IMG/VR virus record: IMGVR_UViG_3300009181_000033
Location: 186,001 to 250,000 of that record
Direction: 5' to 3' (one strand)
DNA from: a virus
Length of the DNA stretch: 64,000 nt
Shown piece by piece: positions 8,965 to 55,122 of this stretch. Under the pieces are notes generated by a model. It was not told where the DNA came from, did no database searches, and saw only the letters and a program-made list of their open reading frames with translations. The position numbers and the translations under genes are program-made. Position 1 is the stretch's first letter; every line of letters starts with the position of its first letter.

Positions 8965-9024
8965 AATTGGCTGAACTCCTCCGAATAAGTATTATGATAT
9001 TACACAATTTAGAAAAAACAGCAA

Positions 9025-13786: not shown

Positions 13787-14443
13787 TCACTCAAATGGAG
13801 GACGAAGCACTCCGTCTTTCGTGAAACCAAATGCCTCGAGGGTGTTCTTGAATACGCCCAAGTCTATCACTTGCTGCAGCATTCTCTCTGCCAAATCCCT
13901 AATTTCTACTTGGGCATGAGTGGAATACCTGAGCTTGACGAAGTGCGCAAATGACCTGAAGTTAAACATCACGTCTGCCGTAATCTGATTTCCATAAGGA
14001 AGATAAAATCTGGCAGATTCCTTTGCTCTCTTCCTAGGAATGCCCTTCTCGACCAACCTGCTGAGCGTCTCGTGGTATCTCTGGAGACATCCCTCCATAT
14101 GCTCGATGTACCTCTCCTGTTCCTCACCATCCCAATCAGTCGGCACATAGTACTTGTCATCCTTCAATTCTTTGTACCTAGCTGACTCGGCGTTGATGGA
14201 AGTGCCAATCCTGTGTTTAAGAAGATGAATGTGGCTGGCCAATTCTGTTGTTACTAAAAAATGCAAAGAAGATTTTTCAAAAACAGTGTGATGTTCATTC
14301 TCAGCTAACATTTTCAACAATGAAGGAATTCTGTTGCTTTTTTCTTCTGTTAAGTCTCTTGAAGTAGAAGTCCATGCAGAAAGTGCATGAGTTTCGTCGG
14401 AGCCATAGTGACCAATTAATTCTACTTTATTATCGTAAGACAT
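13787..14443 (-). CDS. thyX: FAD-dependent thymidylate synthase
   Basis: 218 aa. The ThyX signature RHRxxSxNExSxRY appears as KHRIGTSINAESARY (residues ~77-91), with Lys replacing the first Arg. Other family features are YGSDETHALSAWTSTSRD at the start and RFYLPYGNQI with FNFRSFAHFVKLR later. It methylates dUMP using folate and FADH2, feeding tmk. There is no Shine-Dalgarno; TAGTAT ends six bases before the ATG, with TG one base upstream of it (extended -10). Confidence 0.93.
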   Translation of the reverse strand: MSYDNKVELIGHYGSDETHALSAWTSTSRDLTEEKSNRIPSLLKMLAENEHHTVFEKSSLHFLVTTELASHIHLLKHRIGTSINAESARYKELKDDKYYVPTDWDGEEQERYIEHMEGCLQRYHETLSRLVEKGIPRKRAKESARFYLPYGNQITADVMFNFRSFAHFVKLRYSTHAQVEIRDLAERMLQQVIDLGVFKNTLEAFGFTKDGVLRPPFE

Positions 14444-14449
14444 GTCTCA

Positions 14450-14455
14450 ATACTA
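14450..14455 (-). promoter_or_regulatory. extended -10-like element TAGTAT, 6 nt before thyX start
   Basis: The coding strand reads TGTAGTAT-TGAGAC-ATG. With a normal -10 to +1 distance the mRNA would start at the thyX ATG. Confidence 0.45.
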
Positions 14456-14487
14456 CACCAAGACATTAAAAATAGACAAAAGAAAAA

Positions 14488-14511
14488 GCACGGATGAAAA
14501 ACCATCCGTGC
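14488..14511 (-). terminator. hairpin terminator after the 98-aa gene
   Basis: Perfect 9-bp stem GCACGGATG / CATCCGTGC with a 6-base loop, followed on the minus strand by TTTTTCTTTT. It lies 26 bases past the stop of the 98-aa gene and before thyX. Confidence 0.8.
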
Positions 14512-14536
14512 CCAAAAAAATGCCAATTCTTTTTAT

Positions 14537-14833
14537 TCAGGTTCCTCTTAAATAGTCTTGAAGCTTTTGCTCCATCAATTCCTTCATTTCAATTTCCATC
14601 TCTTCCAAGACCAAATTCATGTGCCCCAACAATTCTCTTTGACTTGTGGGGTTGGGAGAAATGAGTTGAGCATGAATTTTTAAATGTTTCTTTAGATCAG
14701 AACATGCATCACTAGCGATATTAGAAAGAACAAAATCAGGAATGCCACGGGCATAATCCTCCTTGAGGAGACTAAAAATCTCTGAAGAGATAAATTCCTT
14801 GAGGGAGACTTTTTGTCCGTGGCTCTTTTTCAT
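14537..14833 (-). CDS. small helical protein with capsid-signal-like N-terminus
   Basis: 98 aa, unassigned. The N-terminus contains SLKEFISSEIFSLLKED, which resembles T4 capsid-targeting peptides (K-x-x-E-F-I-x-E) more closely than the other proteins in this window do, with L-K-E as a possible cleavage site. The rest is helical and acidic (LVLEEMEIEMKELMEQKL). TACTTA lies five bases before the ATG with no ribosome site, and a terminator follows, so it is a single-gene transcription unit. Confidence 0.6.
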   Translation of the reverse strand: MKKSHGQKVSLKEFISSEIFSLLKEDYARGIPDFVLSNIASDACSDLKKHLKIHAQLISPNPTSQRELLGHMNLVLEEMEIEMKELMEQKLQDYLRGT

Positions 14834-14838
14834 GATAT

Positions 14839-14844
14839 TAAGTA
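14839..14844 (-). promoter_or_regulatory. TAYTTA box (TACTTA), 5 nt before start codon
   Basis: The coding strand reads GTGCAA-TACTTA-ATATC-ATG. Same box and spacing class as the other capsid-signal genes. Confidence 0.4.
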
Positions 14845-14861
14845 TTGCACAGACTGATTAA

Positions 14862-16607
14862 TCAACCACATTTTGAAGTGCCACATGAAGAACACGTAAC
14901 GCACCCCTCCTTATAGACCAATCCTTCGACCCCACAAGAAGCACACTTCTTATCTGAAGTTGAAATTGTTCCATCAGGAATGTGACATTTCAAAACCCTG
15001 GCAATGACCTTGGAGAAGCTTCCCATATCGCTGTGCTTATCCTTTTGTAGCTGCTCCACAAGATATTGAATAGGGACTCCATGCCTGAGAGATAGAGAAA
15101 GTGTCCTTGTGAAAGCACCATGCAAGGGATTTGCGAATAGCTCAACTACATCCTTGAAGATGAGATTGTCGTCTTCACCCACAGGAATAGAAAGATTATA
15201 AGTTGAAACGCCGTCTCGCTTACCATTCTTAATGAGTGTTCCATTTTTCACCTTCTTAGGAACTTCAACGTGGGAGGAAAGGCCGCAGAACAACTCATAA
15301 GGCTTATCATCCAGCTTGCCAACCAAAACCAGATATGTCTCGGGACCATTAGAGCCCTTAAGATTAATCCTGTGAATATCACATGGAAGTTCCTTTGGTC
15401 TCTTTGGTGCATGATGCTCAGCCATCTTCTGGGGCTGACCATCTATGGTAGTTTCCTTGGGGGTGTCCTGGACTAGAACGCCTGTCCTGCAGCCATCGCG
15501 ATAGACTGTAAATCCTTTGCAGCCTGATTCCCAGGCTTTCATGTAAACATCTGCAACGACCTCACGAGAAACATCATTTGGCAGGTTACAAGTTTTTGAG
15601 ATCGCATGACAAACCCATCGCTGGGCGACTGATTGGAGCTTGACAGACATTGGCCAATCAACATCATTCGATGTTGCCTTCCAATAAGGTGAATTCTCCA
15701 CCTTGTCTTCCCCTCCAGTAACATCCATCCACTTCTTGAAACCATGGTGATAAACTTTATACTCTTGCCACTTATCGCCCAAATGATCAACAAAGTCGAC
15801 CCTTGAATCCACATCAGCAGAAGTTATCTTCTTGCGGCGCTTATAGGAAAGAAGATAAGCAGGCTCGATGCCGCTGGTAGTTTGAGTAAGACAAGAAACA
15901 GAGCCTGCAGGCGCTGTTGTTGTCAAAGCAATATTTCTTCGACCATATTTCTTCCAATTATCCACAATGGAAGCATCAGCCTCCATTATCCTCTGAAGGA
16001 AAGAGCTCTTGGTCTCAGCCTCCCACTCGTAAGCTGGGAATGAACCTCGATCCTTCGCCATGTCCACAGAAGAACGATAGGCTGAAAGAGTAAGGGTCTT
16101 ATAAATCTTCTCTGTTAGATCAACGGAGTCCTGAGAGCCATACCTGACATTCAGTGAAGCGATTGCATCACCAAGACCTGTGATTCCAAGCCCAGTCCTT
16201 CGAGCACCAGATGCCGCATCCTTAATCTTAGTCCAAAGATTAATTTCTGCTCTCTTCACATCAGCGCTCTCAGGATCTTCACTGATCTTATTCAGGATGG
16301 CATCAACAGCTTCAATCTCAAGATCAACGAGATCGTCCATTAGCTTTTGAGCCTTCTTAGAAACATCCGTGAACCTCTCGTAATCAAAGACAGGGTTGCT
16401 GCTAAAGGGTTCCTTAACAAACTTCGTAAGATTGACAAGCAAAAGTCGACATGAATCGTAGGGACTGAGGATCAACTCAGCGCAATTATGAACCAAAAGA
16501 CCATTCGCAAAAAAATTATGAACATCATCTACAGTGAGATCATAAACATCTTCGTTGTCAACGTTTTCAATAGTATCAATTTCATCCCAAAACGCTTGTT
16601 CAATCAT
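14862..16607 (-). CDS. nrdJ: class II ribonucleotide reductase, C-terminal fragment with C-half of split intein 2
   Basis: 581 aa. Residues 1-41 are the C-terminal half of a split intein ending VHNFFANGLLVHN; the extein starts at Cys42 in CAELILSPYDSCRLLLVN. Joined to the preceding piece ending STNP it recreates the class II active-site motif NPC-A-E, so the +1 Cys of the intein is also the catalytic thiyl cysteine. Later motifs are GLGITGLGDAIASL, TTTAPAGSVS and TSGIEPAYLLSY. The C-terminus is a zinc ribbon (CASCGVEGLVY, CVTCSSCG). It reduces ribonucleotides using adenosylcobalamin. Its ATG overlaps the stop of the homing endonuclease upstream by eight bases. Confidence 0.93.
   Translation of the reverse strand: MIEQAFWDEIDTIENVDNEDVYDLTVDDVHNFFANGLLVHNCAELILSPYDSCRLLLVNLTKFVKEPFSSNPVFDYERFTDVSKKAQKLMDDLVDLEIEAVDAILNKISEDPESADVKRAEINLWTKIKDAASGARRTGLGITGLGDAIASLNVRYGSQDSVDLTEKIYKTLTLSAYRSSVDMAKDRGSFPAYEWEAETKSSFLQRIMEADASIVDNWKKYGRRNIALTTTAPAGSVSCLTQTTSGIEPAYLLSYKRRKKITSADVDSRVDFVDHLGDKWQEYKVYHHGFKKWMDVTGGEDKVENSPYWKATSNDVDWPMSVKLQSVAQRWVCHAISKTCNLPNDVSREVVADVYMKAWESGCKGFTVYRDGCRTGVLVQDTPKETTIDGQPQKMAEHHAPKRPKELPCDIHRINLKGSNGPETYLVLVGKLDDKPYELFCGLSSHVEVPKKVKNGTLIKNGKRDGVSTYNLSIPVGEDDNLIFKDVVELFANPLHGAFTRTLSLSLRHGVPIQYLVEQLQKDKHSDMGSFSKVIARVLKCHIPDGTISTSDKKCASCGVEGLVYKEGCVTCSSCGTSKCG
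16485..16607 (-). other. C-half of split intein 2 in nrdJ (41 aa)
   Basis: Starts with its own ATG and ends in HN before Cys. Block F is VYDLTVDDVHNFFANG and block G is LLVHN. It pairs with the N-half at 17459-17746. The +1 residue is the reductase catalytic Cys. Confidence 0.9.
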
Positions 16608-17403
16608 GATTTTTAATCTCCAAGTTTCTATTCGCTTTCCATTCTTTCAACGCGGCACTCATGTTTATTCCCAAACCTTCGAGTTCGACCAACGTTAATA
16701 ACACTGAGTTAATTTCAGAATATTCTTTTTTGAACTGTTCAAACTTATCGATTCTTTCCAAAGAACCGTTCGACCATTTCGATTTAATCTCTATTATCCT
16801 TTTCAAGGAATTATTTTCATATACAAAAAAGTCCGGTCTATAATATCGACCATCAGACAAGAGATAACTTCTGCACTCGACATCCCAAATTATATTCTTT
16901 TCATCTAGCCATTTTGCATATGCATATTCCCACGAACTTCTTAACCAAACATATTTAGAATGAGATTTATTGAAATGCCAGCCACAAAGATGATGTGTGT
17001 TGTTTTTGTCTCTATCAATTAATTTGCCAGTCCAATCCCTCCAGGGATTGGTTGGACCGCTGGCATTTTTTGATCTAATTTTTTTTAAATTTTCTGTCAC
17101 ACATGATCTTCCAGTCCTCTGGCTAATGTTAAGTGATTTAAAGATGGTACGTAATCGAGTGTAAGAAACGTTTCCTATCTCTTTTGACAACAACTTAAAT
17201 CCCATTCCACATTCACCATAAAGATAATTTAGATTTGAAATCAACTTGGGACAATCTGGATTGTCCTTGTCAATATAAAAGCTAGCTGTCATGTTTCCAT
17301 TTCTCGATTTAAATTTTCTTTTTTGTTTATCGCAAGCAATGATATGAATCAGCTGTCTTGTTTCTTCAATGAGTTCTTTATTTTCAATTACAATTTGATA
17401 CAT
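16600..17403 (-). CDS. homing endonuclease, PD-(D/E)xK-like, in nrdJ gap 2
   Basis: 267 aa from the ATG at 17403. The C-terminal half carries YVWLRSSWEYAYAKWLDE, YYRPDFFVYENN and RIIEIKSKWSNG, the pattern D-x(n)-E-x-K seen also in the nuclease upstream of dnaE (2593-3519). The N-terminal half resembles a DNA-binding region but lacks zinc pairs. It sits exactly between the two halves of split intein 2, so it is the mobility function of that intein detached into its own gene. Its ribosome site AGGGG and ATG are inside the 3' arm of a perfect hairpin (17401-17448). Confidence 0.78.
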   Translation of the reverse strand: MYQIVIENKELIEETRQLIHIIACDKQKRKFKSRNGNMTASFYIDKDNPDCPKLISNLNYLYGECGMGFKLLSKEIGNVSYTRLRTIFKSLNISQRTGRSCVTENLKKIRSKNASGPTNPWRDWTGKLIDRDKNNTHHLCGWHFNKSHSKYVWLRSSWEYAYAKWLDEKNIIWDVECRSYLLSDGRYYRPDFFVYENNSLKRIIEIKSKWSNGSLERIDKFEQFKKEYSEINSVLLTLVELEGLGINMSAALKEWKANRNLEIKNHD

Positions 17404-17448
17404 CACTAACCCCTACCAATCATAAGTATGGAGCAGGGGTTAGTGATG
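17401..17448 (-). promoter_or_regulatory. hairpin enclosing the RBS and start codon of the homing endonuclease
   Basis: Perfect 14-bp inverted repeat CATCACTAACCCCT / AGGGGTTAGTGATG with a 20-base loop. On the minus strand the 3' arm contains the AGGGG ribosome site and the ATG at 17403. In a read-through transcript from nrdJ the start would be sequestered; a transcript starting inside the loop (TACTTA is there) would leave it free. This resembles translational silencing of T4 intron endonucleases. It could also act as a terminator after the middle nrdJ fragment. Confidence 0.7.
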
Positions 17449-17458
17449 ATCATTTATT

Positions 17459-17746
17459 TCATAACGAAAGAATTTTATCTTCCTTCGTGAGATTACCAGC
17501 TTCAACCCACCCGCGCTGAGTATAGACTCTATGATCTGGCGTTAGTTTAATTTTCTTTCCTGACTTTGTTGTTATCTGCAGAATCTTGGCATTGTCTTTG
17601 GTTTTGAAAGCAATTGCAGGTTTAATTACAATTTCATTGGTTTCAATGTCAAAGGCTTGAACATAGAAATTCGCCTTGTTGTCTGACAATTCTTTTACTG
17701 TTTTTGGTCCTGCATTTGTTCGAACAATTGTGTCACCTGTAACACA
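17459..17746 (-). other. N-half of split intein 2 in nrdJ (95 aa)
   Basis: Starts with Cys after the extein STNP; block A CVTGDTIVRTNAGPKTVKEL and block B LTPDHRVYTQRGW are visible. It ends at a stop codon rather than continuing into an endonuclease domain. Confidence 0.9.
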
Positions 17747-18205
17747 TGGGTTTGTTGAAACATTTCCATAACCTTTATGCTCATAAACCTGGGTTGGAGT
17801 CATCTTCTTAACGGTATCCCAGAAGAGCAACCCCGGCTCGGCAGATGTCCATGCTGAATCAATAATTTGATTCCAGAGCTCACGAGCCTTGACAACCTTG
17901 GTGATCTTGGCTTCTGTAACAGGAACATCGACTGGCCATTGAAGAGTGAAGTCAGAATCATTCTTAACACAATTCATGAAATCATCGGAGAGGCGCACAG
18001 AAATGTTCGCTCCTGTGACTTTGGTAAGATCACGCTTAATATTGACGAATGTCTCCACTTCAGGATGACTACAATTGGAAGTGTAAAACCCATTTGCAAG
18101 AATTCGATGTGTGTCCTTGACCGTAAAGTCATATGTGGTTGATTTTCCGGCCGGAGAAATCCTCTTGATCTTTGATGTTGTCTTTTGAACGTTAGTGACT
18201 TCCAT
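17459..18205 (-). CDS. nrdJ: class II ribonucleotide reductase, middle fragment flanked by intein halves
   Basis: 248 aa with three parts. Residues 1-44 are the C-half of split intein 1 (ending HRILANGFYTSN), residues 45-153 are reductase extein (CSHPEVETFVNIKRDLTKV ... GYGNVSTNP), and residues 154-248 are the N-half of split intein 2 (CVTGDTIVRTNAGPKTVKEL ...). To yield a reductase the protein must be trans-spliced at both ends. GGGAG lies seven bases before the ATG, and the start overlaps the stop of the upstream homing endonuclease by 14 bases. Its terminal boundary is followed by the hairpin at 17401-17448. Confidence 0.93.
   Translation of the reverse strand: MEVTNVQKTTSKIKRISPAGKSTTYDFTVKDTHRILANGFYTSNCSHPEVETFVNIKRDLTKVTGANISVRLSDDFMNCVKNDSDFTLQWPVDVPVTEAKITKVVKARELWNQIIDSAWTSAEPGLLFWDTVKKMTPTQVYEHKGYGNVSTNPCVTGDTIVRTNAGPKTVKELSDNKANFYVQAFDIETNEIVIKPAIAFKTKDNAKILQITTKSGKKIKLTPDHRVYTQRGWVEAGNLTKEDKILSL
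18074..18205 (-). other. C-half of split intein 1 in nrdJ (44 aa)
   Basis: Block F is TYDFTVKDTHRILANGF and the terminus is YTSN followed by Cys. The penultimate residue is Ser rather than the usual His, which may alter Asn cyclisation. Pairs with the N-half at 19164-19475. Confidence 0.85.
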
Positions 18206-19151
18206 TTGTAATCTCCCTAATCTTTTCTACGCAAAATTCCCAGTTATTGTTTATGTCATGTTCCCAAAAGAAAAAATACTTATAACCATTTTCTTTTGCC
18301 AGTCTTTCCTTGATTTTGTCATCAAGTTGTTTCATGACTTGATGTTCCCTGAGCGGTTTCTTACCGTCTCCCCAGAAAGCTGGATTTCCATGCCAAAAAT
18401 CCCCATGGGCCTCTATCACTGTCTTTGAATCCCTCAAAAGAAAGTCATATTGTCTTTGTGCCAATATGAAGCTGTATTTGTAATTTACATTGATTTCTTT
18501 TAGAAAATTTTCTATTTTTTGTTCAATTGAAGTTTTTCGAAAGAGTTCTTTGTGAAATTGATTTCTGGTTGCATTTCGAATCTTTTCTATCGTTTCCAAG
18601 CTGTATATTCCAGTTTTATCCTTATTCCATGGGATATACTTTCTATCAAAAATATTATCGTTGTGTTTTTTTGTTAAGATTCTCTTATCTCTGATTTGTT
18701 CGTAATTTTCTGATTTACACCAGTGAGTCTTTTTGACTGAATCATTTCTTTGAGATAACTTAATTGCGTAACAAGTGTCGGAACAAGTTCCAATTTTTTG
18801 TTTTGATCTTTTGCATTTTGCATTGCAAATCGAACAAAGTCTCCAAGACTTTTCTTCTTTCTTTAAAAGCTTGGATGCTCTTTTGACTTGATGAAGCTCT
18901 TCTGGCGTATACTTCTCTACCGTTATCTTCCTTCTTGATATCTTGGCCGTCTCCCATACTGCCTTAAATTCATACTTGTTTTCAAAAAGTTCGTGAAGTC
19001 TTTGGTTGTTTATATTAAGGGCACGAACAAGCCCTGCCGGAGAACTCATCTTAAATTCATTAACAGTTTTTCCACGATAAAAGACTGTCTCCGGCAACTC
19101 AAAATAAAGAGTCGTGGTTGTTTCATTCAACAATCTCAGGATGATTGACAT
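18192..19151 (-). CDS. homing endonuclease, Vsr-like (EDxHD type), in nrdJ gap 1
   Basis: 319 aa. The C-terminal ~110 residues match the Vsr-fold nuclease described for fractured genes with split inteins: QRQYDFLLRDSKTVIEAHGD then FWHGNP, a spaced K-rich helix, and GYKYFFFWEHDINNNWEF. The middle has a Cys cluster (CSICNAKC, CSDTC) that probably binds zinc. It occupies the gap between the halves of split intein 1 and overlaps the next nrdJ fragment by 14 bases. There is no clear ribosome site; TACTTA ends six bases before the ATG. It belongs to a different nuclease type from the one in gap 2. Confidence 0.82.
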   Translation of the reverse strand: MSIILRLLNETTTTLYFELPETVFYRGKTVNEFKMSSPAGLVRALNINNQRLHELFENKYEFKAVWETAKISRRKITVEKYTPEELHQVKRASKLLKKEEKSWRLCSICNAKCKRSKQKIGTCSDTCYAIKLSQRNDSVKKTHWCKSENYEQIRDKRILTKKHNDNIFDRKYIPWNKDKTGIYSLETIEKIRNATRNQFHKELFRKTSIEQKIENFLKEINVNYKYSFILAQRQYDFLLRDSKTVIEAHGDFWHGNPAFWGDGKKPLREHQVMKQLDDKIKERLAKENGYKYFFFWEHDINNNWEFCVEKIREITNGSH

Positions 19152-19157
19152 GAAACA

Positions 19158-19163
19158 TAAGTA
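19158..19163 (-). promoter_or_regulatory. TAYTTA box (TACTTA), 6 nt before homing endonuclease start
   Basis: The coding strand reads TACTTA-TGTTTC-ATG, immediately after the stop of the N-terminal nrdJ fragment, so this endonuclease may have its own promoter. Confidence 0.4.
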
Positions 19164-19475
19164 TCACCGCTCTTTAAAACTGACATCATAAAAAACAAGT
19201 TCTTCTTTATCAACATCAATATCCTTGATTTGTTTAAGGTACTCTTCGCCTGTCTCGATGTTTTTTACAACAAATTTGTGTGTTGCCGTGACCTTGATGA
19301 TTTTGCCATTTTCAGCTTCAACCTCATAAATTTCACTGTCTTCAAATTTTTGATACGCTTCAATTTCCTTCCAGCCTTCATGGGTCCAAATTTTCCCATT
19401 AAATTTGTTGTCAACAACATCGTCAATTCTTTTCCAACCTTGGTCTGTTAGTACCAAGGTAGAACCTTCAAAGCA
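19164..19475 (-). other. N-half of split intein 1 in nrdJ (103 aa)
   Basis: Begins with Cys after MLTIE. Block A CFEGSTLVLTDQGWKRIDD and block B VTATHKFVVKN are visible. Terminates at TGA just before the endonuclease gene. Confidence 0.9.
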
Positions 19476-20030
19476 TTCAATGGTGAGCATGAGTGCTCCT
19501 CGACGACCACCTTGGGCAACCTCACGGCAAGTATTTGAAAATCTTTCCATGAAGACACCAATGCCATCTGTTGTGCCGGCAGCATTTGCAGTGTGCATGC
19601 CCTTGGGACGAATTGTGGAAATGTCAAAACCGACACCTCCACGACGCTTCATGATCTGAGCCTGCTCCTGGTCTGTGAACAGGATTCCACCATAGGAATC
19701 TTGAGGAGAAGCAATTACGAAACAATTGGATAGAGATTGAAGCTTGTACTCGTTTCCAATTGCCGACATGGGGGAACCCTGAGGAACAACTTCCCATGAA
19801 GACAACATGTCATAAATCTCACCTTCAGTCAATGGATTAGGATACTTGGACTCGATTCTGGCGAACTCCTTTGCAAGACGACGGTGCATATCGCTTGGAG
19901 TCTTCTCAAGCAAGGAACCCTCGGCATTTCTGAGAGCGTACTTCGAAATGAAGACGGAAGCTGCCAATTCATCTCCATTGAAATACTTGAGTGATGCTTC
20001 GTATGCCTCTTCTTTTGTGTATGTGTTCAT
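19164..20030 (-). CDS. nrdJ: class II ribonucleotide reductase, N-terminal fragment with N-half of split intein 1
   Basis: 288 aa. Residues 1-185 are the reductase N-terminus with LQSLSNCFVIASP (first redox Cys), RRGGVGFDISTIRPKG and GGRRGALMLTIE; residues 186-288 are the N-half of split intein 1 starting CFEGSTLVLTDQGWKRIDD. The extein resumes in the middle fragment with CSHPEVETF. With the other two fragments it makes a complete class II reductase (about 834 extein residues by addition). Ribosome site AGGAAAG precedes the ATG; it follows the helicase gene by about 40 bases. Confidence 0.93.
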   Translation of the reverse strand: MNTYTKEEAYEASLKYFNGDELAASVFISKYALRNAEGSLLEKTPSDMHRRLAKEFARIESKYPNPLTEGEIYDMLSSWEVVPQGSPMSAIGNEYKLQSLSNCFVIASPQDSYGGILFTDQEQAQIMKRRGGVGFDISTIRPKGMHTANAAGTTDGIGVFMERFSNTCREVAQGGRRGALMLTIECFEGSTLVLTDQGWKRIDDVVDNKFNGKIWTHEGWKEIEAYQKFEDSEIYEVEAENGKIIKVTATHKFVVKNIETGEEYLKQIKDIDVDKEELVFYDVSFKER

Positions 20031-20068
20031 ATCGATTCTTTCCTAAACGATGGGTCAAGGGTCAATAA

Positions 20069-21514
20069 CTATACGATGCTCGAGTGAGATTCACTCATTC
20101 CATTTAAAGAATTTTTCTTTGAAGAGAACTCCCCTTTGAGCTCCTTCCATTTTGCTCTCAGGGCCTGCTTTTGTGTTTCCTCATCAGAAGCCGTGACTGT
20201 CTCTGGGGCATCGGCTGTTCCAACAATTTCAAACATACTCTTGGCGGTATTCATCTTGATTGGATAAACCAAGCCGTCCCTTCCTGCTCGATTCTTTGCA
20301 ACATAAAGTCTCCCCCACCCAGAAGCCTTCTCATGAGGGCGTCTAGATACAGAGACAATAACATCACAAATCATAGCTTTGCCATAAGCTTCTGACATAT
20401 TTGTCATGTCGATTACTTCGCTATTGGCGCCTTCTTTGTTCGACTGTGATGCTGTCCAAATCGGTATTCCAATCTCCATCGCTAGCCCACGCAACTCTTC
20501 ATAAACAAGTTTAAGCTCATGTCTTAGAGAATCGAACTGCCGTGATGACCTCATGATGTCTGCATAATCAATAATAACAAGATCAGGTTTGAATCCTTTT
20601 AAGTCAAGTCTTTCTATGTGTGACTTGATGGTGTAAATGGAAGCTGTGTTTGTGGGATATTCCTTGATGTAAAGTCGACCAAGGTTCATGTCCTTATATT
20701 TGGCAACAACTTCATCTTTGCGATCCATAACCTCGTTCGAATCTATGTCGCAAAGATTGGAATCGTATCGAATACCGACGGCTGTTTCGGAAAGCTCAAA
20801 GGTGTAGTGAAGAACATTCTTACCTTCACGAAGAGCATTAGCACCAATCATAGTCAGCCAGTGAGACTTGCCGCTGCCGCTGGCACCAACGACACAGAGA
20901 AGTTCGCCCTTACCACTGCCTCCATTTAAGATTTCCTTCTTGTCCAGCTCGGCAAGTCTTGTGGGAATAGTGTCACGCTTTAGCTTGGTGAAGCGTGCAT
21001 CCATTTCATTGAAAAAGTCATGGCCGACGGATGGAGCTGTGCCGACTTGAACAGCCTTCTTGATTGTCTCTACGATAGATTCATACTTGTTTTCCTGCAT
21101 CTGGTCGACGGCAGACTCAAGAGCCTTCTTCAGAGCTTGCTTCCTGCAAAACTCTAGAGACTTGTCCTTGACGTACTGGAGATCGCCGGGATCGGGATTT
21201 GTCCTCATTCTCTGAAGGTAATCAACGATTTGATCACGCAAAATGAGATCGGTGCCGGCCTTGAGATCGTCTTTGATGATGGTAACAAGGAGCTGTAGAG
21301 TTGGGAATACCTTGTACTTCTTTGAATAGGAAAAATATCTGTCGGCCAAGAACTTGAGATAGTTGAGCTCAAAATATGAGACGTCAACAACTTCCATCAT
21401 CTGCTCGGCCCATTTATGATCGGTCAATAAAGCCTGTCCAAGCTTTTCTTGGAACGACTTACCAAATTGGCCGAATGAAACACCATTTGAATTTACGCGA
21501 TCATTTTCTGACAT
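20069..21514 (-). CDS. replicative DNA helicase, DnaB/gp41 type
   Basis: 481 aa. The RecA-like motor domain covers residues ~190-450: Walker A VVGASGSGKSHWLTMI, HYTFELSE, Walker B KPDLVIIDYADIMRSS, and IPIWTASQSNKEG with a downstream arginine-finger-like GLVYPIKMNTAK region. The N-terminal ~180 residues are helical, as in DnaB-family primase-interacting domains. It would unwind DNA at the fork with the dnaE or A-family polymerase. The start overlaps the stop of the FEN nuclease (TAATG) and has GGAG before it. Confidence 0.9.
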   Translation of the reverse strand: MSENDRVNSNGVSFGQFGKSFQEKLGQALLTDHKWAEQMMEVVDVSYFELNYLKFLADRYFSYSKKYKVFPTLQLLVTIIKDDLKAGTDLILRDQIVDYLQRMRTNPDPGDLQYVKDKSLEFCRKQALKKALESAVDQMQENKYESIVETIKKAVQVGTAPSVGHDFFNEMDARFTKLKRDTIPTRLAELDKKEILNGGSGKGELLCVVGASGSGKSHWLTMIGANALREGKNVLHYTFELSETAVGIRYDSNLCDIDSNEVMDRKDEVVAKYKDMNLGRLYIKEYPTNTASIYTIKSHIERLDLKGFKPDLVIIDYADIMRSSRQFDSLRHELKLVYEELRGLAMEIGIPIWTASQSNKEGANSEVIDMTNMSEAYGKAMICDVIVSVSRRPHEKASGWGRLYVAKNRAGRDGLVYPIKMNTAKSMFEIVGTADAPETVTASDEETQKQALRAKWKELKGEFSSKKNSLNGMSESHSSIV

Positions 21515-22485
21515 TAGTTTTTCTCCGAAAGGAACTTAACACCCTCAACACACGACAAATCATAAAAGAAACCTTCAGTGTCGAAGTCATTAATTCCTTC
21601 CTTGACAAGATGCTTAATTAAACCCATTTTATCAACCTTTGGCACAAATGTACTAACTACATTTTCTACCTTCATTACTTGATCAGCCGAAAGCATGCTG
21701 CCATCCAAGTGCACCAGCTTCCAATTCCTCCTGATTTCATCCGCAGACTCAACAACCTTCTTGTAGGAGGAATTCTCCGAAGAATGACTGGCAGCATAAT
21801 CTATCAACTCTTGTAAAAGTATTTCCCTATCTCCTCCCAAAAATGGGAACTTAGTCGCAGTTGTCTTGAAGCCAAATCCTTTTATTCCTGGAATGTTGTC
21901 CGACACATCGCCACAGAGGCACTTTGCCAAAGCGAAATTGTGAGGTTTGACCCTAAATTCTTCGAATATGTCGTCGGGGACGATTAACTTCCTCTTATGC
22001 AGTGAATAAATCTTCGTGCTGTCATTCAACAACTGATACATGTCCTTATCAGAGGAAACGATGATCTTTTGCTGGTCGCCCAATGGTCCTCTGCAAAGAT
22101 ATGACACAACATCATCTCCTTCACAATCAGACACATAAATCTGACAGACAGGAATGGTTTTTAGCGCAGCCAGCAAACTGAAGAGCTGATATTGCTTATT
22201 CTCGTCCGTGTCAGGTATGTCGTCCTGATAGAAGCGATTGAGCTTCTCTGGCTTTTTATTCATCTTGTACTCAGGATATATTTTTCTGCGCCTTTGGGAA
22301 CCTCCACCTTCCCAGGCAACATACACCTTGGACGGCTGAAATTCCCGACACAGCCTCTGTAACGTCTTCATGAAGCCTACGCAACCTCCCATTTGATGAC
22401 CGTGGGACGACATTTGTGGATAGGCAGAGTATGACCTCACGAAAAGGTTGTAACCATCGATAATAAAAACGGGACGGTCGCTCAT
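21514..22485 (-). CDS. 5'-3' exonuclease / FEN family
   Basis: 323 aa. Metal and DNA-binding motifs of the flap endonuclease family: VFIIDGYNLFVRSY at the N-terminus, VAWEGGGSQRRRKIYPEYK, YVSDCEGDDVVSYL, IVSSDKDMYQLL, and the helix-hairpin-helix GDVSDNIPGIKGFG. It would remove RNA primers or process 5' flaps during replication, like T4 RNase H. The ATG lies inside a perfect 15-bp hairpin (22473-22514) and has no Shine-Dalgarno, so translation initiation is likely controlled by that structure. Confidence 0.9.
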   Translation of the reverse strand: MSDRPVFIIDGYNLFVRSYSAYPQMSSHGHQMGGCVGFMKTLQRLCREFQPSKVYVAWEGGGSQRRRKIYPEYKMNKKPEKLNRFYQDDIPDTDENKQYQLFSLLAALKTIPVCQIYVSDCEGDDVVSYLCRGPLGDQQKIIVSSDKDMYQLLNDSTKIYSLHKRKLIVPDDIFEEFRVKPHNFALAKCLCGDVSDNIPGIKGFGFKTTATKFPFLGGDREILLQELIDYAASHSSENSSYKKVVESADEIRRNWKLVHLDGSMLSADQVMKVENVVSTFVPKVDKMGLIKHLVKEGINDFDTEGFFYDLSCVEGVKFLSEKN

Positions 22486-22514
22486 GGGTTCAAATTATTC
22501 CATGAGCGACCGTC
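22473..22514 (-). promoter_or_regulatory. perfect hairpin containing the FEN start codon
   Basis: 15-bp perfect inverted repeat GACGGTCGCTCATGG / CCATGAGCGACCGTC with a 12-base loop. It starts about 18 bases past the stop of the actin-like gene, and its 3' arm on the minus strand contains the FEN ATG and its first codons. It may terminate the upstream transcript, hide the FEN start, or both. Confidence 0.75.
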
Positions 22515-22531
22515 AGTACAACAATCAATTT

Positions 22532-23533
22532 TTAAAGAATTTGAGATGCGATTAAGCAACCTCTGGCGACCGCATGGAGTGGATCCGACGCTTGACGCAC
22601 TATTTTCACAGGTAATGGAAAACCATTTTCTTTTAATTTCTTTTCAAAGTGAGTCACAAAACCTTTCGCCTTGGTCGTACCACCGGCAATAACAACCGGC
22701 AGGGGATCCTTAAATTTGGGTAGAGACTTATGGTCTTGCATTGCAGCAACCAATTGTTTAGCGGTATAGTCAATCAATCTATCATAATAGGTTGCGACAG
22801 CCGAAAGAACCTGGTTTTCATTCTGTTTTCCAACGGCAAAATCACCATTTTCTTTCTCAGCCTGAACAACCGAGTCGGTCTCGCCTGTGGCCACGGCAGA
22901 CATTCTATCAACCCAATCCCCGCTCTTTGTTGTTGAAAATTTTGTAATAGGTTCTCCGGCAAGCATCACACAAACATTAACCATACCGGCACCCCAAGAC
23001 AGAGCAACACCCGTGTATTCGTCATCAGAGAGCTCCGAGTAACAGAGGGCCTCGGCCTCATTAATTGATCTAGAATCGTAACCATTCTCTTCAAGGATCT
23101 TTTTTACAACATCCTCGTGATAACCGACATCAAAATCATCGTCTTCCTGATCAACAGGTTGTGCAGGAACACAAAACACAAGTTTTTCGCCTTTTTTCGC
23201 TGCCTTACCGGCAACTTCTTTCAAAATATATGAGAGGATTCTCCTAGCGTCTTTTTCCTTGGAAGAAACTACACCGCGATACATTGGCCTCTTTGCCGAA
23301 TCATTCCTTTCAACGGCTTTTTCAATTGCATCCTTTCCTAAGATGATGAAAGAACCGTCTGAATCCTTCACGTAATTTTTGCCTGCAAGACCTTTTTCTA
23401 TCATTTTTGTAGCGATAGGAGTAGATGGTTTGATGATGTAAAAAGCATCCCTGAAATCTTTATATTCAACGCCACCATCTGTCTCCGACGCTAAAACTAT
23501 AAAAGAAGTTCCAACATCCAATCCTTTAGACAT
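22532..23533 (-). CDS. actin/Hsp70-superfamily ATPase (ParM-like)
   Basis: 333 aa. Phosphate-1 motif SKGLDVGTSFIVLAS (residues 2-16), phosphate-2 motif TGVALSWGAGMVNVCVM (near residue 175) and adenosine motif PVVIAGGTTKAKGFVTHF (near residue 285) define the actin-like ATPase fold. Prokaryotic members polymerise into filaments moving plasmids or organising replication. It is downstream of a small membrane-anchored protein and in line with replication genes, which suggests a role in positioning replicating phage DNA; it could alternatively be a chaperone-like ATPase. Ribosome site AAAGGG. Confidence 0.82.
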   Translation of the reverse strand: MSKGLDVGTSFIVLASETDGGVEYKDFRDAFYIIKPSTPIATKMIEKGLAGKNYVKDSDGSFIILGKDAIEKAVERNDSAKRPMYRGVVSSKEKDARRILSYILKEVAGKAAKKGEKLVFCVPAQPVDQEDDDFDVGYHEDVVKKILEENGYDSRSINEAEALCYSELSDDEYTGVALSWGAGMVNVCVMLAGEPITKFSTTKSGDWVDRMSAVATGETDSVVQAEKENGDFAVGKQNENQVLSAVATYYDRLIDYTAKQLVAAMQDHKSLPKFKDPLPVVIAGGTTKAKGFVTHFEKKLKENGFPLPVKIVRQASDPLHAVARGCLIASQIL

Positions 23534-23540
23534 AAAAAAA

Positions 23541-23843
23541 TTAACCCTTTCGATTTTTTAATCTTGATAACTTATCAGCAGCACTAAGTATGTCATCACT
23601 AGATTTCGTCACAGTTCCCAGCTTTTCACTCGGGGCATCGAAAGAATCAGTGGACACATTCGTTACAAATTTTCTATCGTCTATTTCTATTTTTGGTTTT
23701 TCTAATTTTTCTCTTCCCTTGGGTGGCGAAAATGAAATTAGGGGATTGTCGACTTGGGTATTTTCTTTTCGCAAATAAGATATGACTATATCAAATCTGC
23801 CCACAGCATAACCAAGCACAAAACCAGTAAAGAAACAAAACAT
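23541..23843 (-). CDS. small membrane-anchored protein upstream of the actin-like ATPase
   Basis: About 100 aa. One N-terminal membrane segment (FCFFTGFVLGYAVGRF), then a charged cytoplasmic tail with no recognised domain. I start at the ATG at 23843; an in-frame TTG nine bases earlier with AGGTGA before it is also possible. It lies 14 bases after dut and 8 bases before the actin-like gene, so it may be that protein's membrane partner. Confidence 0.65.
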   Translation of the reverse strand: MFCFFTGFVLGYAVGRFDIVISYLRKENTQVDNPLISFSPPKGREKLEKPKIEIDDRKFVTNVSTDSFDAPSEKLGTVTKSSDDILSAADKLSRLKNRKG

Positions 23844-23856
23844 TAATTCCAAAACT

Positions 23857-24312
23857 TCACCTCACTCCCGTGCTGCCAAACCCACCAATGCCCCTATCAG
23901 TGTCAGACAGCTTTTCACTTTTCAAGAAAGCCACCCTAATGACTTCGCTAAAAACAAGTTGAGCAATCCTGTCGCCTTTTTTTATAAAGAAGTCTTGGGC
24001 GCTTGTGTTGTAAAGAATGACCTTGATCTCACCAGTATAGTCGCTATCAATTGTTCCCGGGCTATTGAGAACAGTGATACCGTGCTTTGCCGCTAATCCA
24101 CTTCGAGGTCTTACCTGGCCCTCAAGCCCTTCCGGAATCTCAAGTCTGAGACCTGTTCCAATGAGACAACTGGCACCGGCAGGAACATTCGAATCTTCAC
24201 TGGCTCTCAGATCACATCCGGATGCCCCTTTTGTTGCGTAATGTGGAAGCAATGTATCGTCTTCAATAATATAACCAACAAATGCTAGCCTGGTGTCACT
24301 CATCTGTGTCAT
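23857..24312 (-). CDS. dut: trimeric dUTPase
   Basis: 151 aa from the ATG at 24312, which has GGAGGA before it. All five conserved motifs are present: ASGCDLRA (1), RPRSGLAAK (2), GTIDSDYTGEI (3), GDRIAQLV (4) and RGIGGFGSTG (5). It hydrolyses dUTP to dUMP, which feeds ThyX and keeps uracil out of DNA. It overlaps the end of the C-terminal recA fragment by 17 bases. Confidence 0.95.
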   Translation of the reverse strand: MTQMSDTRLAFVGYIIEDDTLLPHYATKGASGCDLRASEDSNVPAGASCLIGTGLRLEIPEGLEGQVRPRSGLAAKHGITVLNSPGTIDSDYTGEIKVILYNTSAQDFFIKKGDRIAQLVFSEVIRVAFLKSEKLSDTDRGIGGFGSTGVR

Positions 24313-25249
24313 ATTCCTCCTCCTCGTTATTCTCAGTAGCACTGGCACCTGTGTTTATGATGAGAGCTTCATCGACGGCCATCATCACATACTTGTGGTA
24401 CTTTTCGTCCTTCATTACGCTAGCGAACTCAGCCTTATAGAATTTCTTCTCTGCAACGACCTCGCCAGTTTTTTCGTCCGTAACGGTGAGCTCCTTCCAA
24501 GCACCTTCACCCGAAATATTCACCCTAACACCGTTACGAACAACGCCTTTGTTTTCCTTACAATACGACTTTACCTCGTCGAAGAGGTACTCGCCTTCGA
24601 CAATTCCCTTGCCAAATATAATGTCGAATTCACACTTGCGGAACGGTGCTGCAACCTTATTCTTCTTGATAGTAACCGTGGTATGAATTCCAATTACGTT
24701 GCCGGCCTTGTCCTTCACTGGATTACCACTACCAAGAGATATCCTCACTGAAGAATGGAAAGGAATTGCCTTTCCACCGGGTGTTACAGTGGGGTCACCG
24801 TACATGGTATTGTGGGAAAGAATTCCATTTGAGAAATAAGAATGTGAATTCTCGACTTCAATATCAAGAATGTCTGTTTGCTGATTTAAATGAACAATTT
24901 TAGCATATGTCCACCCAAGATCCTGATGAAAGAATTGAACATTTTCACAATCAACTAAAGCTATCGCTTCAACCCAGTGGGGCTTTGAACCACCAACACA
25001 AACCCAAAATCTATGAAGAGGAGAAACATTAAGATTGAACTCTTCAATTCTATAAATGTCAGTACAAGACTTTCTGACTATGTTTTTGATCAATTCCCAG
25101 CCCTTGTTGCCATAAGAATCCTGGGTAAAAACTTCGTAACCATGGTTCTCAACATTAACCGGTTCATCAAAGGGCATTTCTTCATAAGAAGAGCCCATAC
25201 TTTCAAATAGCTTAGAAATCGAAATTTGTTCTTGATTCGTGTAGCTCAT
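24296..25249 (-). CDS. recA: RecA/UvsX recombinase, C-terminal fragment with large C-half of an atypical split intein
   Basis: 317 aa. Residues 1-147 are intein: block B FNLNVSPLHRFWVCV, and block F/G DILDIEVENSHSYFSNG then ILSHN. The extein starts at Thr148 with TMYGDPTVTPGGKAIPFHSS, which continues the RecA sequence ending NQIREKIG in the N-terminal fragment. The rest is the RecA C-terminal core and an acidic tail (NNEEEEYDTDE). With only 15 intein residues on the N-side, this C-half contains nearly the whole splicing domain. The start overlaps the end of a homing endonuclease remnant. Confidence 0.92.
   Translation of the reverse strand: MSYTNQEQISISKLFESMGSSYEEMPFDEPVNVENHGYEVFTQDSYGNKGWELIKNIVRKSCTDIYRIEEFNLNVSPLHRFWVCVGGSKPHWVEAIALVDCENVQFFHQDLGWTYAKIVHLNQQTDILDIEVENSHSYFSNGILSHNTMYGDPTVTPGGKAIPFHSSVRISLGSGNPVKDKAGNVIGIHTTVTIKKNKVAAPFRKCEFDIIFGKGIVEGEYLFDEVKSYCKENKGVVRNGVRVNISGEGAWKELTVTDEKTGEVVAEKKFYKAEFASVMKDEKYHKYVMMAVDEALIINTGASATENNEEEEYDTDE
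24809..25249 (-). other. C-half of atypical split intein in recA (147 aa)
   Basis: Begins at its own ATG, carries blocks B, F and G, and ends SHN before a +1 Thr. Its size and the very short partner are like the AceL-TerL type of atypically split inteins, rather than the usual ~100 + ~40 arrangement seen in nrdJ here. Confidence 0.88.
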
Positions 25250-25439
25250 ATTCTCTTATCTTTCCCAAAATCCAATCTTTGGAATTGGAGTCTTTCTTTC
25301 TGATATCGTTTTCCCACACAGTGATCAATTTGTATCCTTTAATTTTAGCGCAAGATTTTTTTGCAAAATCCCTTCGCATTAGCTTCTTTTGCATGTAAAG
25401 CATTTCTTTTCCATGCAAATAAGCATCAATCAAGTTTGA
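25212..25439 (-). pseudogene. remnant of a Vsr-like homing endonuclease in the recA gap
   Basis: The frame continues directly after the recA N-fragment stop as SNLIDAYLHGKEMLYMQKKL and then KSCAKIKGYKLITVWENDIR, matching the C-terminal part of the Vsr-like nuclease at 18192-19151 (GYKYFFFWEHDI). The catalytic IEAHGD-FWHG region is missing, so most of the gene has been deleted. It marks a homing endonuclease that once filled the gap between the intein halves. Confidence 0.75.
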
Positions 25440-25487
25440 TTATGCCACCCTTTTTCTCACAGTTAGTTGAGTGCTTGGGCCAACACA
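25440..25487 (-). other. N-half of atypical split intein in recA (15 aa)
   Basis: Cys1 followed by VGPSTQLTVRKRVA and a TAA stop. Only block A is present. The C-half at 24809-25249 supplies all other blocks. Confidence 0.85.
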
Positions 25488-26171
25488 ACCAATTTTTTCT
25501 CGAATTTGATTAAGGCAGAGAAGAGTGACGTTGTTCTGACCAATGACTCCGGTGATCTTGCGCATGCCTTTTGAGATAACTCGGGCCTGCAGACCGATCG
25601 TATTGTCTTCATATTCACCGTCAAGCTCGGCCTTGGGTGAAGTGGCTGCGACCGAATCCCAAATAACAAGAATAGGAATGTTCTTGTCCAGGACTTGTTT
25701 GGCTTTGAGAATAGTCGACTCAATAATTGAGAAGACTTCCTCGGTCATATGAGAATCACAATAAACGAATCTCTTCTTCACGTCGATGCCCATGTCGGCA
25801 AGCTTCTGGACAGGCGTGGCATTCTCCGTGTCGATGTATACAACCAGCCCACCCATTGCTTGGGTGACTGCTGCAGCGTGATAAGCCAAGTGCGACTTAC
25901 CGCAAGAAGGAGGGCCTGAAATTTCAATAATCCTCCCTTCTGGATATCCTCCAGATGTCGTGTTCCTGATTGCATAATTTAGCTGAATGGAGCCCGTATC
26001 AATCCAGCGCTTCACAACAGTTGGTGCATCCATTTCGGAGAGATTGAAGGCAATCCTTGAGCCAAATTCCTTGTTGATGGACGATATGAGGTCCTTCATC
26101 ATGTCGTCAACATCGCCTTTTTTAGTAAGCTGAAATCCCTCAGGGTCTACTGTTTTTTCTTTTTTTGCCAT
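25440..26171 (-). CDS. recA: RecA/UvsX recombinase, N-terminal fragment ending in a 15-residue N-intein
   Basis: 243 aa. Walker A is SGPPSCGKSHLAYH (residues ~85-98), Walker B is ILVIWDSVAA, and the C-terminal extein is LLCLNQIREKIG (to residue 228). It then enters CVGPSTQLTVRKRVA and stops. Joined to the C-fragment it gives the canonical RecA sequence around the L2 loop. It forms filaments on ssDNA for recombination-dependent replication and repair. GAGGA ribosome site before the ATG, and a GC-rich terminator separates it from the ssDNA-binding protein gene. Confidence 0.93.
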   Translation of the reverse strand: MAKKEKTVDPEGFQLTKKGDVDDMMKDLISSINKEFGSRIAFNLSEMDAPTVVKRWIDTGSIQLNYAIRNTTSGGYPEGRIIEISGPPSCGKSHLAYHAAAVTQAMGGLVVYIDTENATPVQKLADMGIDVKKRFVYCDSHMTEEVFSIIESTILKAKQVLDKNIPILVIWDSVAATSPKAELDGEYEDNTIGLQARVISKGMRKITGVIGQNNVTLLCLNQIREKIGCVGPSTQLTVRKRVA

Positions 26172-26203
26172 TTTTCCTCAAAAATATTTTATTCAAAACG
26201 AAC

Positions 26204-26226
26204 GGGGCGGGTTCTTCGCCCGCCCC
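26204..26226 (-). terminator. GC-rich hairpin terminator after the ssDNA-binding protein gene
   Basis: 8-bp perfect GC stem GGGGCGGG / CCCGCCCC with a 7-base loop, just past the stop at 26234 in the direction of transcription and followed by GTTCGTTTTG. Confidence 0.8.
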
Positions 26227-26233
26227 TTCACTC

Positions 26234-27085
26234 TCACTCGTCGTCCATTAGCTCTGCGAAAGCGTCGTCAAGCGATTGTTTCTTTGTGCTTGGCTTTGCC
26301 GCAACTGGCTCTGACTTCTTTGGTGCTGGCACCTTTTTCTCGGTCGGCTTCAGCTCAGCAGCAAGATTATCGAGCTCATCAGAAGAAGTTGGTCCACGTG
26401 ATGTTCCGGCATTCGTGTCCTCAGAAGCTGTGTCACCACTTAGCCAGCTATTGAGAACTGCCTCGATCTCAGAAGGAGACTTGATGGGATACATATCGTC
26501 AATATTTGGAATCGACTCAAGCCACTTAGAGCTCACTGAATGATCATCATGTAGCTTCGTCGGCCTCCGGGCCGGATCGACCATCGTATCCATGAACTGC
26601 TTTCCTGGTGCCTGAGACAGCGTCACCTTTAGATCAAAGCCTTCAGCAGGTGAGAGAATGTCTCCAACCTCTTCGTCAAGGAAGAAGCTCAACATCCTCT
26701 GGTAAACAATCTTACCGAAGGACCAAACAAGAACACCTTGATCCTCCTGACCACGGACAATGACTGGGGCATAACATCGCATCTTGGGAGCGAGCTTCTT
26801 AGCAAGAACCCTGTCATCAGGCTTGCCACTGCTGTAAAGTTTGCGAATCAGATCATGGATAGGATCTGGCTTTCCAAACTGATTGGGTGCAAGGATGCCC
26901 TTATTCTCACCAAGGTAATAGAACCACCTCTCGAGGAAAGGCTGTCCGTCACCTGAATTCTTCCAAGGGAGACACCGAATCTTGTGCTCTCCAACCTTCG
27001 GCTTCCACATCTGGACCGAAGACGTCCTCTTGACACCGCTTAGCTCCGCAACACGACGCTTAATTGCCTCTAGATCAATAGCCAT
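26234..27085 (-). CDS. single-stranded DNA-binding protein, gp32-like
   Basis: 283 aa from the ATG at 27085 (AGGAAT before it). The N-terminus MAIDLEAIKRRVAELSG, the core HKIRCLPWKNSGDGQPFLER and the long disordered Lys/Pro/Ser linker ending in the acidic tail DDAFAELMDDE fit phage ssDNA-binding proteins that use an acidic tip to recruit partners. Its position directly before recA matches T4-like replication clusters. I could not see the zinc ligands of T4 gp32, so it may belong to a zinc-free branch. Confidence 0.75.
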   Translation of the reverse strand: MAIDLEAIKRRVAELSGVKRTSSVQMWKPKVGEHKIRCLPWKNSGDGQPFLERWFYYLGENKGILAPNQFGKPDPIHDLIRKLYSSGKPDDRVLAKKLAPKMRCYAPVIVRGQEDQGVLVWSFGKIVYQRMLSFFLDEEVGDILSPAEGFDLKVTLSQAPGKQFMDTMVDPARRPTKLHDDHSVSSKWLESIPNIDDMYPIKSPSEIEAVLNSWLSGDTASEDTNAGTSRGPTSSDELDNLAAELKPTEKKVPAPKKSEPVAAKPSTKKQSLDDAFAELMDDE

Positions 27086-45668: not shown

Positions 45669-45674
45669 GGCACA

Positions 45675-45680
45675 AATATA
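45675..45680 (-). promoter_or_regulatory. extended -10 TGGTATATT, 6 nt before start codon
   Basis: The coding strand reads TGTGGTATATT-TGTGCC-ATG. The gene at 46515 has the nearly identical GTGGTATATT-TCTACC-ATG, so the element travelled with, or was selected for, both endonucleases. Confidence 0.55.
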
Positions 45681-45717
45681 CCACAGCCTACGAAGTTGTA
45701 TAATCCAGTTGGCAGTG

Positions 45718-47073: not shown

Positions 47074-47188
47074 TTTTGTCTCCTTGTTGCCTTTTTTCTC
47101 GGCATTCACTCTTAAATATCAACAAATTATTTTTTTATCATCTTTATTTTTATAGAATAACTATATTCTAGTGGAAAGGCAAGATAAG

Positions 47189-55078: not shown

Positions 55079-55116
55079 TACCTATCTCCTTAAATGTGGG
55101 CTTTCGCTTCAGAAGA

Positions 55117-55122
55117 TAAGTA
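55117..55122 (-). promoter_or_regulatory. TAYTTA box (TACTTA) upstream of the sheath genes
   Basis: GATAA-TACTTA-TC on the coding strand, 38 bases before the sheath B ATG, in a gene-free gap of 115 bases. Candidate late promoter for the two sheath genes. Confidence 0.4.

What the first reader, a model, noticed from the sequence alone, without database searches (positions are those of the whole stretch)
14862..20030. nrdJ broken into three genes by two different split inteins, each gap filled by a homing endonuclease
The class II reductase is spread over fragments 19164-20030, 17459-18205 and 14862-16607. Each junction has an N-intein of 95-103 residues, a stop, a complete endonuclease gene, then a C-intein of 41-44 residues with its own start. 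The middle fragment must be trans-spliced at both ends. The endonucleases are of two unrelated types (Vsr-like in gap 1, PD-(D/E)xK-like in gap 2), so the two invasions were independent. Intein 2 sits at the catalytic Cys itself. Fractured genes with split inteins are known from metagenomes (Dassa et al. 2009), but a double split with two endonuclease families in one gene looks unusual.
Basis: partly seen in the sequence, partly recalled or inferred. Interest (0 to 1): 0.88.

Follow-up and report, generated by a model that had tools for sequence, protein, structure and literature searches.

The report
Reductase gene split by two inteins
In this large phage the gene for an essential DNA-building enzyme is cut into three separate genes by two different selfish "split inteins", each carrying its own DNA-cutting gene, so the enzyme must be glued together from three proteins at two joints, one of them the catalytic amino acid; relatives show that the two inserts move independently and that the same gene can be cut into as many as four pieces.

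Summary
Confirmed, with corrections. On the minus strand, nrdJ (class II ribonucleotide reductase) lies in three ORFs, separated by two inserts of 1,402 and 1,262 nt. Each insert is N-intein, stop, endonuclease gene, C-intein. The joined exteins give 834 residues tiling the reductase profile 1-87/85-212/212-523; no other large subunit occurs in the 297,894-bp record. Junction 2 is the residue aligned with catalytic Cys322 of 1XJE. In 54 of 77 assessable viral contigs both sites are empty with exactly zero extra bases. Others carry only module 1, only module 2, a contiguous mini-intein at site 2, or an unrelated HNH intein there, so the invasions are separable. HE1 is Vsr/EDxHD-like; HE2 is TnsA-like PD-(D/E)xK. 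Trans-splicing is inferred, not shown.

A new variant of "fractured genes".

The parts
19476..20030 (-). nrdJ extein 1 (185 aa), ends ...RRGALMLTIE
   Evidence: Ribonuc_red_lgN and lgC profile positions 1-87; intein-free relatives
19164..19475 (-). N-intein of split intein 1 (103 aa; Cys1, TxxH block TATH), then stop
   Evidence: Pfam Intein_splicing E=0.003, below cut-off; conserved in L013, L066, L104, L106
18192..19151 (-). HE1, Vsr/EDxHD-type homing endonuclease (319 aa)
   Evidence: profile vs Vsr 1cw0 E=1.5e-4; Pfam Vsr in 5 of 5 members; stop overlaps next start by 14 nt
18074..18205 (-). C-intein of split intein 1 (44 aa, ...ANGFYTSN|C)
   Evidence: 77-98% identical in five site-1 relatives
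17747..18073 (-). nrdJ extein 2 (109 aa), CSHPEV...VSTNP
   Evidence: Ribonuc_red_lgC positions 85-212
17459..17746 (-). N-intein of split intein 2 (95 aa; Cys1, TPDH), then stop
   Evidence: Pfam Intein_splicing 3e-11; joined N2+C2 matches NrdJ-1 intein 8ubs E=1e-19
17401..17450 (-). RNA hairpin that pairs the HE2 Shine-Dalgarno-like AGGGG and start codon; ATACTTAT (17422-17429) within its apical part
   Evidence: z=-7.4; 6 of 13 pairs with compensatory change in 10 sequences; ATACTT is the most enriched leader hexamer
16600..17406 (-). HE2, PD-(D/E)xK-type endonuclease (268 aa; probable start ATG 17403)
   Evidence: AF2 model pLDDT 71.5, best PDB folds 1wdj and TnsA, E 0.03-0.04; RPDFF...EIKSK conserved in 8 relatives
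16485..16607 (-). C-intein of split intein 2 (41 aa, ...ANGLLVHN|C); start overlaps HE2 stop by 8 nt
   Evidence: Pfam Intein_splicing positions 119-155 E=2e-8
14862..16484 (-). nrdJ extein 3 (540 aa); first residue = catalytic Cys (C322 of 1XJE)
   Evidence: alignment; Ribonuc_red_lgC positions 212-523

Best explanation
A class II ribonucleotide reductase of a jumbo phage is made as three polypeptides and assembled by two successive protein trans-splicing reactions. Pair 1 (N1 + C1) joins extein 1 to extein 2; pair 2 (N2 + C2) joins extein 2 to extein 3 and leaves the catalytic Cys as the first residue of extein 3. Without splicing at site 2 the catalytic Cys stays at the C-intein/extein junction of a separate chain. 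Each gap holds a homing endonuclease gene that presumably cuts the matching empty nrdJ site in a co-infecting relative, so the N-intein/endonuclease/C-intein block is copied in as one unit. The two blocks are separate mobile modules that arrived independently. Shown from sequence: anatomy, exact insert borders, conserved splice residues, purifying selection, scattered distribution, empty sites, hairpin. Inferred: splicing, order and orthogonality of the pairs, endonuclease activity and homing, and hairpin control of HE2.
For: Exact tiling of the reductase profile by the three exteins, with no other copy. Junction 2 aligns to Cys322 of 1XJE. Zero-base gaps at both sites in 54 of 77 contigs, and constant insert sizes in the others. 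Single-module relatives: L066 and L105 site 1 only; L006, L014, L111, L114, L115, L117, L120, L121 site 2 only. The same site-2 intein is contiguous (131-133 aa) in L104 and L123-125. Splice-junction residues are invariant in 13 split relatives. pN 0.04-0.4 against pS 0.5-1.1 in all parts, endonucleases included. Extein/intein incongruence: L013 is nearer to the window in exteins, L066/L104 in intein 1. Parsimony needs 5 changes for site 1 and 8 for site 2 on the extein tree, and the window sits among empty-site relatives. Endonuclease identities.
Against: No splicing, cleavage or expression data. Intein 1 is divergent: its Pfam match is below cut-off and the residue before the terminal Asn is Ser, not the usual His. 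Synonymous sites are saturated, so recent transfer cannot be dated. HE2 and especially HE1 structure models rest on three sequences (HE1 pLDDT 60, fold search uninformative). Endonuclease targets are unknown.
Confidence: 0.9

Rival explanations
1. The three chains assemble non-covalently into an active reductase without splicing, as reported for the endonuclease-split NrdA of phage Aeh1; the intein halves are relics.
For: A gene-in-pieces reductase that keeps function is known (cited in PMC10448857 and PMC2988022).
Against: Intein halves are mostly better conserved than exteins 2 and 3 in the same pairs of phages (for window against L066, N1/C1 84/91% and E2/E3 58/63%) and all junction residues are invariant. 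At site 2 the catalytic Cys would be preceded by 41 intein residues.
Confidence: 0.05
2. The interruption is removed at RNA level by a group I or II intron, and the intein-like pieces are incidental.
For: Group I introns exist next to the intein in recA of relatives L150, L154 and L013, one of them with a Vsr-like endonuclease.
Against: No intron family in window 14000-27000 even at E<=1, nor at gathering scores in L162, L104, L066, L006, while the gathering search does find them in L150/L154/L013. Insert borders equal intein borders, not endonuclease borders.
Confidence: 0.02
3. nrdJ is a decaying pseudogene or an assembly artefact.
For: Phage reductase genes with inteins can decay (Campylobacter phage Cpt10, PMC3653736); HE1 of relative L105 is frameshifted.
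Against: All exteins are open, under purifying selection and keep the catalytic Cys motifs. The same stop/restart structure recurs in more than ten independent contigs.
Confidence: 0.02

Closest known systems
Fractured genes with split inteins and Vsr-like endonuclease (Dassa et al. 2009; paper not held in the library, cited through PMC3653736 and PMC10448857)
   Same: Gene broken by a canonically split intein with a free endonuclease ORF in the gap; nrdA and nrdJ among the hosts; HE1 is of the Vsr/EDxHD type.
   Different: Two different modules in one gene, the second with a TnsA-like PD-(D/E)xK endonuclease; relatives have up to three splits. Whether Dassa et al. saw a double split could not be checked.
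NrdJ-1 split intein (PDB 8ubs)
   Same: Intein of a class II reductase used as a split intein; N2+C2 aligns over its length, E=1e-19.
   Different: Only distantly similar; its native exteins, gap endonuclease and insertion point were not available here.
Vsr/EDxHD homing endonucleases (I-Bth0305I)
   Same: HE1 nuclease domain matches Vsr, with invariant E210, D236, H249 and H254.
   Different: Sits between intein halves, not in a group I intron; Pfam score is below the curated cut-off in the window copy.
T4 homing-endonuclease leaders (I-TevI/II/III, mobE; PMC2988022)
   Same: HE2 has a stable hairpin burying Shine-Dalgarno and start codon, with a promoter-like element placed so that an internal transcript would lack the 5' arm.
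   Different: No transcript mapped; motif clear in some relatives only; host element is a split intein.
Atypically split inteins (IntN 15-25 aa; PMC12707363)
   Same: The recA intein in the same window has a 15-aa N part.
   Different: Concerns recA, not nrdJ; here the gap holds an endonuclease stump that is full length in L031.

Membership tests
Class II ribonucleotide reductase (NrdJ) | All-alpha plus barrel domain and catalytic Cys motif NPCxE | tested here: met
   best structure match is B12-dependent reductase 1XJE
Class II ribonucleotide reductase (NrdJ) | Cobalamin dependence | not testable with these tools
   inferred from best match only
Fractured gene with split intein | N-intein at the end of one ORF and C-intein at the start of another, separate in frame | tested here: met
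   inserts of 1402 and 1262 nt
Fractured gene with split intein | Splice nucleophiles Cys1, TxxH, terminal Asn and Cys+1 | tested here: met
   penultimate His replaced by Ser in intein 1
Fractured gene with split intein | Endonuclease ORF in the gap | tested here: met
Fractured gene with split intein | Actual trans-splicing | not testable with these tools
   needs expression or proteomics
EDxHD (Vsr-like) homing endonuclease: HE1 | Vsr-like catalytic domain with conserved E, D, H residues | tested here: met
   Vsr profile score below curated cut-off in window copy
PD-(D/E)xK endonuclease: HE2 | PD...(D/E)xK motif and restriction-endonuclease-like fold | tested here: met
   RPDFF...EIKSK; fold matches TnsA with probability 1.0 but E only 0.04
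Homing endonuclease (HE1, HE2) | Cuts the intein-free allele and drives copying of the insert | tested here: inconclusive
   scattered distribution and incongruence fit; no cleavage data
Group I or II intron | Catalytic intron RNA | tested here: not met
   positive control
T4-type hairpin control of endonuclease | Hairpin over the ribosome-binding site with a late promoter inside | tested here: inconclusive
   hairpin supported; promoter role of ATACTTAT inferred from enrichment

The most novel reading that the evidence does not exclude
In a lineage of jumbo phages, nrdJ is a multi-site docking gene for interchangeable split-intein/endonuclease modules, so one essential enzyme is assembled in nature from three (window, L104) or four (L162) polypeptides by mutually orthogonal trans-splicing pairs, with the endonuclease held back by a start-codon hairpin so that early nrdJ expression is not disturbed.
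Probability: 0.65. Interest if true: 0.78.

Novelty: new variant of a known kind. Interest (0 to 1): 0.66.

Why it matters
It offers natural examples of two- and three-fold tandem protein trans-splicing in one enzyme, hence candidate naturally matched, possibly mutually orthogonal split-intein pairs, which protein engineers now assemble artificially. The comparison set (empty site, contiguous mini-intein, split with endonuclease, split with dead or truncated endonuclease) makes the open question of how contiguous inteins become split directly testable: here the split position coincides with an inserted endonuclease gene, both at the canonical place (nrdJ) and near the N-terminus (recA).

Tried and rejected
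Group I/II intron in the nrdJ gaps: Rfam negative, positive in recA of relatives. Intact second nrdJ: none. Dating transfer by synonymous divergence: saturated. Fold search of HE1: model too poor, matches meaningless. HE2 relatives in the annotated phage collection: none; intein 2 in bacterial genomes: none. Split crAss-phage nrdJ (L156, L158) are two-gene cases interrupted by an ORF; whether by intron or intein was not resolved. Dassa et al. 2009 was not in the paper library, so priority of a double split could not be excluded.
Full report
OBSERVATION. Cutting them at the intein borders gives exteins of 185, 109 and 540 aa, N-inteins of 103 and 95 aa and C-inteins of 44 and 41 aa. The exteins tile the Pfam reductase barrel profile 1-87, 85-212 and 212-523, and no other large-subunit sequence occurs in the 297,894-bp virus record that holds the window. 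The joined protein matches B12-dependent reductase 1XJE; the first residue after junction 2 aligns with Cys322, which from general knowledge is the thiyl-radical cysteine. Both N-inteins start with Cys and have the TxxH block; both C-inteins end in Asn followed by Cys. Intein 1 has Ser instead of His before the Asn. Extein G+C is 0.44-0.47; intein and endonuclease G+C is 0.32-0.40.

NOT AN ARTEFACT. IMG/VR gave 77 other contigs in which both sites can be judged; this set is enriched for inteins because several queries were inteins or their endonucleases. In 54 both sites are empty with exactly zero extra bases. In the 62 assessable contigs fetched with the C-terminal nrdJ piece (which carries C-intein 2), 52 are empty at both. 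Site-1 split inserts are 1401-1483 nt and site-2 split inserts 1257-1264 nt; the window has 1402 and 1262. In every intact split relative the N-intein ends in a stop, an endonuclease ORF follows, and the C-half has its own start, usually overlapping the endonuclease stop by 4 to 17 nt. This repeated structure, from different metagenomes, excludes assembly error.

TWO SEPARATE MODULES. L066 and L105 have module 1 only; L006, L014, L111, L114, L115, L117, L120 and L121 have module 2 only. L013 has module 1 with an unrelated contiguous HNH intein at site 2. L104 and L123-125 have the site-2 intein as a contiguous 131-133 aa mini-intein without endonuclease. L105 has module 1 with a frameshifted endonuclease. 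On an extein tree the window lies inside a supported clade of 23 rows whose other 22 members are empty at both sites; five changes are needed for site 1 and eight for site 2. L013 is closer to the window in exteins (E1/E2/E3 88/72/71%) than L066 (73/58/63%), but L066 is closer in intein 1 (N1/C1 84/91% against 75/80%). This fits horizontal movement. Synonymous sites are saturated, so timing is unknown; nonsynonymous change is low in all parts.

ENDONUCLEASES. HE1: a five-member profile finds Vsr 1cw0 at E=1.5e-4 and all five members hit Pfam Vsr, with invariant E210, D236, H249 and H254. It therefore falls with the EDxHD (Vsr-like) homing endonucleases. HE2: eight members share RPDFF...E(I/V)KS; the predicted nuclease domain resembles TnsA (probability 1.0, E 0.04). 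The two profiles show no relation. Both active-site types are described as similar in a review (PMC3943268), so 'unrelated' should read 'different families'.

MORE THAN TWO. L104 is also doubly split: module 1, plus a third site (SISKT|C...N|CNLPN) with a PD-(D/E)xK-like ORF in the gap. L162 is split three times: module 1, a site at TTAPAG|C...N|SVSTL with a Vsr-like ORF, and the third site with a PD-(D/E)xK-like ORF, giving four nrdJ pieces. L106 has module 1 and runs off its contig inside intein 2. The window is the only complete case with splits at both site 1 and site 2.

HAIRPIN. Between the N2 stop and HE2 lies a hairpin (-33.7 kcal/mol, z -7.4) that pairs AGGGG and the HE2 start codon. 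It is kept in ten sequences with compensatory changes in 6 of 13 pairs, above all shuffles and slid versions. ATACTTAT lies in its upper part. ATACTT is the most over-represented hexamer in this phage's intergenic leaders (12 of 37 occurrences, p 1.4e-7 before correction for the number of hexamers) and ATACTTAT precedes the tail sheath and a head-tail adaptor gene. This is the layout described for T4 I-TevI, I-TevII, I-TevIII and mobE, where the hairpin blocks early translation and a late promoter inside frees it (PMC2988022). The promoter role here is inferred.

MECHANISM. Most likely the three chains are joined by two trans-splicing reactions; the middle chain carries C1 at its N-terminus and N2 at its C-terminus, so the two pairs must not cross-react. 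N1/N2 are 31% and C1/C2 35% identical, compatible with orthogonality but not proof. Non-covalent assembly without splicing is unlikely, since the intein halves are well conserved and the catalytic Cys is itself a splice residue. An RNA-level intron is not detected although Rfam finds group I introns in recA of relatives.

A THIRD FRACTURED GENE. recA in the same window is split by an atypical intein (15-aa N part at the end of 25440-26171, 147-aa C part at the start of 24296-25249). Its gap keeps only a ~65-residue tail of a Vsr-like endonuclease that is full length in L031. The lengths fit the atypically split inteins of PMC12707363 (IntN 15-25 aa).

NOVELTY. Fractured genes with split inteins and Vsr-like endonucleases are known (Dassa et al. 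2009, cited in PMC3653736, PMC10448857; not readable here). A review of phage reductases lists two nrdJ interrupted by inteins in ocean data (PMC3653736). I found no description of one gene split by two or three split inteins in the papers held, but the key paper could not be read, so novelty is stated as a new variant, not as a new kind.

Noticed in passing
window 24296-26171 (-): recA is a third fractured gene: RecA-N (25440-26171) ends in a 15-aa N-intein (CVGPSTQLTVRKRVA), RecA-C (24296-25249) starts with a 147-aa C-intein (...SHN|TMYGDP); an atypically split intein.
   Followed up: yes
window 25240-25439 (-): The recA gap encodes in one frame a ~65-aa tail of a Vsr-like endonuclease (AKIKGYKLITVWENDI...); L031 has a full-length endonuclease (1666-2508) at the same place, so the window copy is a remnant.
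   Followed up: yes
L150 3423-5477; L154 2795-5486: recA of relatives has an atypically split intein followed within a few codons by a group I intron (Rfam RF00028); in L154 the intron holds a Vsr-like endonuclease.
   Followed up: partly
L162 4074-11526: nrdJ in four pieces with three split inteins and three endonuclease ORFs of two types; the neighbouring DnaB gene holds a contiguous intein.
   Followed up: partly
L097 7774-10902 (record 257774-260902, outside the window): Contiguous intein with an HNH-like part in a probable portal protein of the same phage.
   Followed up: no
window 47171-48844 (+), 44004-45770 (-), 62887-63873 (-): Three further probable free-standing homing endonucleases; the first is on the opposite strand among tail genes.
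   Followed up: partly
L066 3568-5095: DnaB helicase C-part begins with a C-intein (...LLSHN|SHFLV) preceded by a Vsr-like ORF: another fractured replication gene.
   Followed up: no
window 17422-17429, 19157-19164, 55116-55123, 58284-58291, 8985-8992 (-): ATACTTAT just upstream of gene starts, incl. HE1, HE2, tail sheath and head-tail adaptor: candidate late promoter element.
   Followed up: partly
junction 1 in L029, L030, L031, L041: Residue +1 at site 1 is Cys in all split alleles but Val in most empty ones; these four empty alleles have Cys, either ready targets or scars of lost inteins.
   Followed up: no
L126 6001-6895: An N2-like N-intein (40%) with stop and a C2-like C-intein match about 500 bp further on, with no reductase match on the locus; host gene not identified.
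   Followed up: no
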